20,354 nt of DNA from a bacterium (lineage in GTDB: Bacteria > CG2-30-53-67 > CG2-30-70-394), in assembly GCA_024278555.1 (NCBI GenBank), contig JAJRSX010000047.1, positions 1 through 20,354 of the forward strand, given 5' to 3'. Under the pieces are notes generated by a model. That model searched no databases, was not told the origin of the DNA, and worked only from the letters and a program-made list of their open reading frames with translations. The position numbers were made by a program, and so were the translations under genes. Shown here one piece after another: positions 1-20,354 of this stretch (position 1 is the first letter of the stretch; each line of letters starts with the position of its first letter).

Positions 1-297
1 ACGGTGGAGCTGCGTGATCTGGACACGCAGATTCACCTGTCCCCGATCCGAAGCCGGGCTAAGCTGGTGGCGACGCGAACGAAGCTGGTGAATCACGTCC
101 GGGGGCAGGTGAAGTCGTTGGGCTACCGGGTGAAGTCGTGTGACCCGGATCAGTTTCCCGCTGCGGCGACGAGCTCGCTGCCTTCCGAGGTGGAGGTGGT
201 GATCGAGCCGGCGTTGAAGATCATCCTCGGGCTGACGGAGCAACTCCAGGAGCTGGATCGGGCGATCGAGGCACAGAGGACACAGAGAACTGCATAA
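1..297 (+). pseudogene. IS110-family transposase fragment, interior part only
   Basis: The frame is open from base 1, so the gene begins outside the window. The peptide contains LSPIRSRAKLVATRTKLVNH followed by VRGQVKSLG and a helical stretch ending in LQELDRAIE. This is the pattern of IS110-family (DEDD) transposases at the end of the RuvC-like domain and the following coiled-coil linker. The C-terminal Tnp_20 domain with its catalytic serine is missing. The reading frame instead runs into a cacagag-type repeat at about base 268 and stops at 295-297, so the last residues (AQRTQRTA) are translated repeat. I infer an inactive remnant cut off at the repeat. Family assignment is from recognition, not a search. 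Confidence 0.75.
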
Positions 298-427
298 GGA
301 AAGGTGCTTTCCTCCTCTTGGGCCTCGCAATGGATCGCCACGGGGTTGCCGTGCGCGAGGACGGCGCAAGATCGTGCTGTTTTCTGATGGAGTTCTCTGT
401 GCCCTCCGTTTCTCTGTGGTGAAAATC
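269..427. repeat. Interspersed cacagag-type repeat with inverted arms
   Basis: The left arm at 271-290 (CACAGAGGACACAGAGAACT) is complementary, with mismatches, to the right arm at about 390-418. About 100 bases lie between them. The inner part plus the right arm (about 327-420) resembles the reverse complement of 13515-13620, including GTTTTCTGAT next to GTTCTCTGTGCCC. This is therefore a dispersed element rather than a local hairpin. It truncates the IS110 fragment on its left. Function unknown. Confidence 0.6.
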
Positions 428-508
428 CCTTCCGGGAGCCCCCACCTCCCGGCCGAGGGGTGGAGCGACGCCGTACTTGGCCTCCATTGCTATCTCCGCT
501 GATCCTCT
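411..508 (+). repeat. Copy 1 of a ~99-bp repeat shared by both window ends
   Basis: This segment matches the reverse complement of 20135-20233 at roughly 90 percent by eye, with one single-base indel. Shared words include GGTGAAAATCCCTTCCGGGAG and GGAGCGACGCCGTACTTGG. Both copies lie beside mobile-element sequence. No protein is supported here: the small open frame at 460-660 is translated repeat. The rest of the gene-free stretch (509-656) shows only the weak promoter-like bases ahead of pilX. Confidence 0.75.
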
Positions 509-621
509 TTGTGCTATTCGTGGTTTCGATCGGGGCGTCGTGGGTGATGGGTCCGGAGACGACGATCAGAGATGCGCGCCGCCATGGTGAAACCTTTTCT
601 CCGCCCGGTGTGTCGTGCGGC

Positions 622-19981: not shown

Positions 19982-20134
19982 CCACTCCCTCGAGGTCTCG
20001 GGAGCATCGACTTTCTCGCCAGTCATTATTTCCGCTGCTCCTCGAAGGGGAGGAAACCGAGGGCTCGGTGTCACAGGTGGCTTGATGTGGGCAAGGGGCA
20101 GCCTTGAAGGCGGGCCGTACTACAGAGGGCACTG

Positions 20135-20233
20135 AGAGGATCAGCGGAAATAGCAACGCGGGCCAAGTACGGCGTCGCTCCACGCCTCGGCCGGGAGGTG
20201 GAGGGCTCCCGGAAGGGATTTTCACCACGGAGA
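20135..20233 (-). repeat. Copy 2 of the ~99-bp repeat shared by both window ends
   Basis: This is the inverted partner of 411-508 at roughly 90 percent identity. In copy 1 the match is followed by a complete cacagag-type tract. Here that tract stops after ACCACGGAGA (20224-20233) and unrelated sequence leading to a transposase-like start begins, as if an element had inserted there. Confidence 0.75.
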
Positions 20234-20239
20234 TGGGAT

Positions 20240-20324
20240 GAGGAGGCCGCTCTCCTCGCGAGCTCAGGTTCTAACCTGGCTCAATGCTAACCACGGGCTC
20301 GGAGCCCACAAGCAAAGGAGAGCG
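20240..20324 (+). promoter_or_regulatory. Structured leader with alternative hairpins over the transposase RBS
   Basis: CGCTCTCCT (with GCTCTCCT at 20249-20256) is complementary to AGGAGAGC (20316-20323), which contains the ribosome binding site. Inside lie two hairpins, CAGGTT/AACCTG (20265-20278) and GGGCTC/GAGCCC (20295-20307). Alternatively CTCCTC (20252-20257) can pair with GAGGAG (20240-20245). The two pairings exclude each other. The region could act as a translational switch, or as an IS110-type guide (bridge) RNA. Confidence 0.5.
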
Positions 20325-20327
20325 ACC

Positions 20328-20354
20328 ATGAAGCAGGCTACCACGCAGACGATC
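20328..20354 (+). CDS. Start of a probable transposase, truncated by the window end
   Basis: ATG 20328 opens a frame of nine codons (MKQATTQTI) to the end of the window, with AAAGGAG five to eleven bases upstream. Position after a structured leader and beside a repeat suggests a transposase, possibly IS110-like as at the left edge. Too little sequence is visible to be sure. Confidence 0.4.

What the first reader, a model, noticed from the sequence alone, without database searches (positions are those of the whole stretch)
20240..20354. Mobile-element leader with two mutually exclusive hairpins, one hiding the transposase RBS
CTCCT at 20252-20256 can pair either with GAGGAG upstream (20240-20245) or with the AGGAG ribosome binding site at 20316-20320 inside a 9-bp closing stem (20248-20256 with 20316-20324). 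Two further perfect hairpins lie inside. The layout resembles a closed multi-stem RNA of about 77 nt. IS110-family elements are known to encode bridge/seek RNAs in non-coding ends next to the transposase. This could therefore be such a guide RNA, a translational switch, or both.
Basis: partly seen in the sequence, partly recalled or inferred. Interest (0 to 1): 0.6.

Follow-up and report, generated by a model that had tools for sequence, protein, structure and literature searches.

The report
Transposase leader that hides its RBS
The end of this stretch is the left end of a mobile element of the IS1111 kind, whose messenger RNA folds into a three-stem shape, conserved across unrelated bacteria, that covers the spot where translation of the transposase would start, while the RNA that guides the element to its target appears to be encoded at the other end.

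Summary
The pairings are real and conserved. The contig breaks inside a multi-copy IS110-superfamily element. Its first 98 nt form a closing stem holding the ribosome binding site, plus two hairpins, ending at the transposase ATG. A covariance model finds the same leader in 12 further genomes; in G127 it precedes an intact 356-aa IS110-family transposase. On a model-fitted alignment 22 of 25 pairs change on both sides and still pair (93.9% of cells paired; 31-45% when slid). Rfam has no match.

The right ends settle the class: sub-terminal inverted repeat ATGAGAAGG/CCTTCTCAT, 7-nt left and 3-nt right extensions, long right non-coding region, i.e. IS1111 group. That region, not the leader, carries target-matching guides (8, 7 and 6 nt in three elements, at one homologous position) and a donor-junction match that covaries once. 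In four of five lineages joined ends give a sigma70-like promoter starting transcription about at the closing stem.

Verdict: translation-repressing transposase 5'-UTR, like ISPpu9 in logic, but a compact unlisted RNA family. It is unlikely to be the bridge/seek RNA. The 'mutually exclusive' hairpin is peculiar to this lineage; its 5' arm lies in the sub-terminal repeat. Translational effects are untested.

The parts
20129..20230 (+). left target flank: genomic repeat that ends ...TTTTCACCACGG
   Evidence: 20129-20233 recurs in the genome without the element; intact sites read TTTCACCACAGAGACACAGAGG, which equals left flank plus right flank with the element removed
20231..20237 (+). left terminal extension of the element, AGATGGG (7 nt)
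   Evidence: start of the sequence shared by copies; homologues AGATAGT, AGATAAA, AGTTAGG and others; 7-nt left extension is an IS1111-group trait
20238..20252 (+). sub-terminal inverted repeat ATGAGGAGGCCGCTC; its partner GAGCGGCCTCCTCAT lies at the right end in other contigs of the same genome
   Evidence: right ends L030, L038, L039, L042, L089, L090, L103; core ATGAGAAGG/CCTTCTCAT in G285, G422, G440, G391
20234..20239 (+). position of the -10 half of the junction promoter (TAGTAT, TAGAAT, TAGGAT, TAAAAT in relatives); here TGGGAT with a 23-nt spacer, probably not functional
20245..20256 (+). 5' arm of the closing stem
20260..20282 (+). hairpin 1 (4 bp, one bulged U, 5 bp)
   Evidence: all 9 pairs show changes on both sides
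20283..20294 (+). single-stranded linker AATGCTAACCAC, variable between lineages
20295..20307 (+). hairpin 2 (5 bp)
   Evidence: all 5 pairs show changes on both sides
20316..20327 (+). 3' arm of the closing stem; contains the ribosome binding site AGGAG at 20316-20320
20328..20354 (+). first 9 codons of the transposase, MKQATTQTI, cut by the contig end
   Evidence: copies L019-L023 continue MK(Q/R)ATTQTIGVDVSDRKSRICVLP...
1..267 (+). another, truncated copy of the same element: piece of the transposase gene fused to the target repeat (268 onward)
   Evidence: NCBIfam NF033542 positions 117-212, E 4.9e-7; repeat family

Best explanation
This is the left end and 5' untranslated leader of an IS1111-group insertion sequence. 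When the element circularises, a -35 box at its right end and a -10 box in the first 9 nt of its left end are joined, and transcription starts at about the first base of the closing stem. The transcript folds at once into a closing stem with two inner hairpins; the closing stem pairs the ribosome binding site and ends right before the AUG, so the transposase is translated only rarely. Target and donor recognition is done by a separate structured RNA encoded in the right-end non-coding region. Shown here: the conserved structure, the hidden RBS (by folding), the transposase downstream, the ends, the promoter arrangement in 4 of 5 lineages, and target and donor matches in the right end. Inferred: low translation, transcription start, and what opens the leader. 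In this host the copies look decayed and the junction promoter is badly spaced.
For: Conserved leader found by covariance model in 13 genomes: G000, G013, G127, G285 and, in G285's phylum, 10 of 68 genomes including G285. Intact transposase directly behind it in L122: PF01548 and PF02371 above cut-off, NF033542 E 7e-68. Covariation: 22 of 25 pairs with changes on both sides, score 0.56 against 0.18 shuffled and 0.05-0.07 when slid. Independent single-sequence folds give the RBS-holding stem in 11 of 11 lineage representatives, mean probability that the RBS is unpaired 0.02-0.40. IS1111-type ends against published criteria. Junction promoters, TTGACA-like, 17-18 nt, TAnnAT-like, in G285, G422, G440, G391. 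Target guide in the right end: suffix matches of 8, 7 and 6 nt with the own target against 2-3 with others; donor junction ATGGAAG or ATGGGAG copied in the right-end RNA, covarying in G391. Precedent: in ISPpu9, weakening the RBS-burying 5'-UTR structure raised expression 26-fold (PMC8450116).
Against: No expression data. The pair counts come from an alignment fitted to the model; MAFFT plus RNAalifold without that help recovers only the closing stem. In this genome the right-end part that would hold the guides is not in the assembly, so guide location is inferred from relatives, and the promoter spacing is poor (23 nt). The second (top-strand) target guide is inconsistent: it fits the right flank of L097 and, with one G-U pair, of L191, but not of L190. 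The strong conservation of hairpins 1 and 2 is more than RBS hiding alone needs.
Confidence: 0.77

Rival explanations
1. The leader is itself the bridge/seek RNA: it binds the transposase and pairs with target and donor DNA, as in IS110-group elements with a left-end guide RNA.
For: Length (about 80-100 nt) fits seekRNAs of 70-100 nt and it lies upstream of tnp as in IS110-type elements. In this genome ACCACGG in the linker also occurs in one variant of the target.
Against: Leader matches to target are at background (3-5 nt) in the three elements tested, while right-end matches are 6-8 nt at one homologous place. Ends are IS1111-type, where the guide RNA is at the right end. The ACCACGG match is not kept between copies with other targets or in other lineages.
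Confidence: 0.06
2. A two-state translational switch: GAGGAG (20240-20245) pairs with CTCCTC to free the RBS, in competition with the closing stem, for example on read-through transcripts.
For: The alternative hairpin is strong here (-10.1 kcal/mol alone) and would form first during transcription from outside.
Against: Closed state wins by 7.6 kcal/mol; in ten other lineages the 5' segment alone folds at only 0 to -3.8 kcal/mol; the GAGGAG arm lies within the sub-terminal repeat and probably largely upstream of the predicted start of the circle transcript.
Confidence: 0.06
3. The leader is a regulated site: transposase, its guide-RNA complex or an antisense RNA binds hairpins 1 and 2 and opens or locks the RBS (feedback control).
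For: Hairpins 1 and 2 are conserved in shape with covariation, more than a simple RBS-masking stem needs; ISPpu9 uses an antisense RNA to open its 5'-UTR.
Against: No binding partner or antisense promoter was tested here. It is an extension of the best explanation, not an alternative to RBS hiding.
Confidence: 0.08
4. The inverted repeats act as DNA (transposase binding or cruciform at the left end), not as RNA.
For: The closing stem overlaps the sub-terminal inverted repeat; DNA palindromes also covary.
Against: Only the outer 9-15 bp are matched at the right end; the inner helices exist only at the left end, contain U-G pairs (4, 7 and 6 cells at three pairs), and end with an RBS and start codon at a fixed distance in 10 of 11 lineage representatives (7 nt).
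Confidence: 0.03

Closest known systems
ISPpu9 (Pseudomonas putida) transposase 5'-UTR with sRNAs Asr9 and Ssr9 (PMC8450116)
   Same: IS110-superfamily transposase whose mRNA 5'-UTR buries the RBS; multi-copy element inserted in genomic repeats; a further RNA encoded downstream of tnp.
   Different: ISPpu9 5'-UTR is 244 nt with a 180-nt antisense RNA. Here the leader is about 98 nt of element sequence before the ATG, starts at the closing stem if the predicted promoter is right, and is conserved over distant lineages; antisense RNA not tested. Sequence homology to ISPpu9 was not tested.
IS1111-group bridge RNA / seekRNA (PMC11208160, PMC11187229)
   Same: Sub-terminal inverted repeat, 7/3-nt extensions, long right-end non-coding region with target and donor matches, circle-junction promoter.
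   Different: The feature reported here is a second structured RNA, at the left end, overlapping the RBS, without target matches.
IS110-group bridge RNA (IS621) and ISEc21 seekRNA
   Same: Structured RNA between left end and transposase.
   Different: Those carry guides in internal loops; this leader has small closed loops and no target match in the elements tested.

Membership tests
IS110 superfamily (DEDD transposase) | DEDD_Tnp_IS110 plus Transposase_20 domains | tested here: met
   L122 protein downstream of a homologous leader: PF01548 67 bits, PF02371 68 bits, NF033542 229 bits. In the host itself only fragments.
IS1111 group | sub-terminal inverted repeats, usually 11-13 bp (range 7-17) | tested here: met
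   15 bp in this genome; 9 bp core in G285, G422, G440, G391; published range
IS1111 group | terminal extensions of 7 bp left and 3 bp right | tested here: met
   AGATGGG and GGA; removing the element restores the intact repeat CACAGAGACACAGAGG
IS1111 group | long non-coding region downstream of tnp with the guide RNA | tested here: met
   about 315 nt in L097 and more in L190; target suffix matches of 6-8 nt at a homologous place and donor-junction match. Met in relatives; not testable in the host assembly.
IS110-group bridge RNA located in the left end | left-end RNA with stretches complementary to both strands of the target | tested here: not met
   leader matches at background in three elements
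RBS-hiding transposase leader (ISPpu9-like) | RBS paired in a stable 5'-UTR structure | tested here: met
   11 of 11 lineage representatives
RBS-hiding transposase leader (ISPpu9-like) | weakening the structure raises translation | not testable with these tools
   needs reporter assays
Any Rfam 15 family | match at or above gathering score | tested here: not met
   no match for the window, nothing at the leaders down to E 10 in five sources

The most novel reading that the evidence does not exclude
A second conserved RNA of RNA-guided IS1111-type elements: a left-end leader that the transposase or its guide-RNA complex recognises, coupling translation of the recombinase to the amount of guide RNA or to circle formation, that is, an RNA feedback circuit between the two ends of the element.
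Probability: 0.15. Interest if true: 0.7.

Novelty: new variant of a known kind. Interest (0 to 1): 0.42.

Why it matters
It separates two roles that are easily confused in RNA-guided transposons: a non-coding end that hides the RBS and one that guides insertion. A conserved leader family with a covariance model gives a handle for finding these elements and for testing how RNA-guided recombinases keep their own expression low. It also warns that 'structured RNA next to an IS110-family transposase' is not enough to call a bridge RNA.

Tried and rejected
Pfam domains in the host genome: no match, only relics. Relatives of the 98-aa fragment in plasmids, phages and viral contigs: none. Pattern scan of viral contigs for the linker/hairpin 2 motif: none. 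Full-length IS110 relatives in plasmids are about 32-38% identical, and eight of them carry no leader of this family even at E 10; L097-L099 give no match either, but the left end is missing from L097 and was not located in L098 and L099. Reading the ACCACGG of the linker as a target guide was dropped because it is not kept across copies and lineages. The first idea that GAGA belongs to a short target duplication was dropped once right ends were found. RNAalifold on a plain MAFFT alignment finds only the closing stem, because MAFFT misaligns the hairpins.

Full report
1. Observation. The sequence and coordinates are as stated. 20240-20328 folds at -40.6 kcal/mol, z -3.65 against dinucleotide shuffles, none of 200 as stable. 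A fold forced to contain the alternative hairpin is 7.6 kcal/mol worse and has negligible probability at equilibrium.

2. What it belongs to. The window is one contig of a draft genome, and its last 135 bases recur about 25 times, mostly where contigs end. Longer copies run on into MK(Q/R)ATTQTIGVDVSDRKSRICVLP..., and the window's own first 267 bases are a further piece of the same gene, matching NCBIfam IS110 transposase NF033542 at positions 117-212. No copy in the assembly reaches the Pfam cut-off; several share one internal deletion, so this population looks decayed, or the intact copy was not assembled.

3. Homologous leaders. DNA search of 98 relatives found one distant leader, in G013, a genome of another phylum. 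It has the same layout with a compensating change in the closing stem and a different hairpin 1. A covariance model then found G285 and G127, and an improved one found ten of 68 genomes in the phylum of G285. In L122 (G127) the leader stands directly before an intact 356-aa transposase with both IS110 Pfam domains; its only sequence matches among solved structures are the IS621 and ISCro4 transposases. On the alignment of 36 leaders (27 distinct) 93.9% of cells pair, 22 of 25 pairs show changes on both sides, and the covariation score is 0.561, against 0.179 shuffled and at most 0.073 when partners are slid. That alignment was fitted to the model; the plain alignment supports only the closing stem. 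Independent of any alignment, single folds of 11 lineage representatives all put the RBS into the closing stem, with 7 nt from RBS to start codon in ten of them. Eight other IS110-family elements from plasmids lack the leader, and Rfam has no such family. Two of the hits, in G410 and G434, are degenerate and fold differently.

4. The other end. Contig starts of G285 revealed three right ends...TTGATTTACCTTCTCATGGA|AGCACGAG, and the own genome has ...TTGACAGGGAGCGGCCTCCTCATGGA|AGACACAGAGG. Left ends start AGATnnn-ATGAGAAGG. This is a sub-terminal inverted repeat with a 7-nt extension left and a 3-nt one right, and joining the flanks gives the intact repeat seen many times in the genome. These are published marks of the IS1111 group. 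G422, G440 and G391 agree.

5. Where the guide is. The right-end non-coding region contains, in order, TGGCC...GGCCG, a guide, (A/G)AT(T)GCAGCACC, a hairpin, and GTGCGAATGGAAGC. The guide ends with the target bases just left of the insertion point plus AG: the match is 8 nt in G440, 7 in G422, 6 in G127, against 2-3 for mismatched pairs. The last motif copies the donor junction ATGGA|AG; G391, whose right end is ATGGG, has ATGGGAG in the RNA, while G422 has one mismatch. A match to the right flank just before TGGCC is exact over 8 nt in L097, near-exact in L191 and absent in L190 (read; L097 has a second 8-nt match elsewhere, so this part is only suggestive). The leader has no match above background. 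So the guide RNA is at the right end, as in other IS1111 elements, and the leader is something else.

6. How it works, most likely. Joining right and left ends makes -35 TTGACA/TTGATT/TTGACT and -10 TAGAAT/TAGGAT/TAGTAT/TAAAAT at 17-18 nt in four of five lineages; transcription would start about at the closing stem. The mRNA then folds over its RBS. In the host the spacer is 23 nt, so its copies may be silent. The logic matches ISPpu9, where weakening the RBS-burying structure raised expression 26-fold. What opens the leader is not known; hairpins 1 and 2 are conserved beyond what RBS hiding needs, which leaves room for a binding partner.

7. The 'two exclusive hairpins'. The 5' arm of the alternative hairpin lies in the sub-terminal repeat and probably largely upstream of the predicted transcript start. 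In ten other lineages the same segment alone folds at 0 to -3.8 kcal/mol. It may form on read-through transcripts in this lineage but is not a conserved switch.

8. Novelty. The principle (RBS-hiding leader of an IS110-superfamily transposase) is known; this compact three-helix leader, found in 13 genomes from several phyla and absent from Rfam, was not found described in the papers searched.

Noticed in passing
L011, L024, L050 (and L025 7 nt later): Separate left-end copies in the host genome stop at exactly the same base, ...GACCGGAAGAGC, 18 codons into the transposase, and then run into unrelated DNA. This suggests a short non-autonomous derivative or a preferred pseudo right end.
   Followed up: partly
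L015:3764-3880: A palindromic copy: left end followed, at the closing stem, by an inverted copy of the left end (GGCCTCCTCATCCCATCTC), as if replication had switched template inside the stem.
   Followed up: no
window 268-511 and about 60 further places in the genome: A repeat family of about 240 bp with CACAGAGG-type ends; it is the landing site of the element and is shared by window positions 411-514 and 20129-20233 in opposite orientation.
   Followed up: partly
window 1-267; L086; L088: Copies truncated at different points of the element but joined directly to the CACAGAGG side of the target repeat.
   Followed up: partly
L119, L120, L121, L164, L189 (G285): The G285 element lands in simple repeats of the type GATTACGATTACG/AGCACGAGCACG, which are scattered in that genome.
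   Followed up: no
L097:1024-1341, L190:3004-3450, L191:3480-3766, L122:4056-4331: A second conserved RNA, probably the bridge/seek RNA of this IS1111 subgroup, with a covarying hairpin between TTGCACC and GAGTGCGAATGG; no covariance model was built for it.
   Followed up: partly
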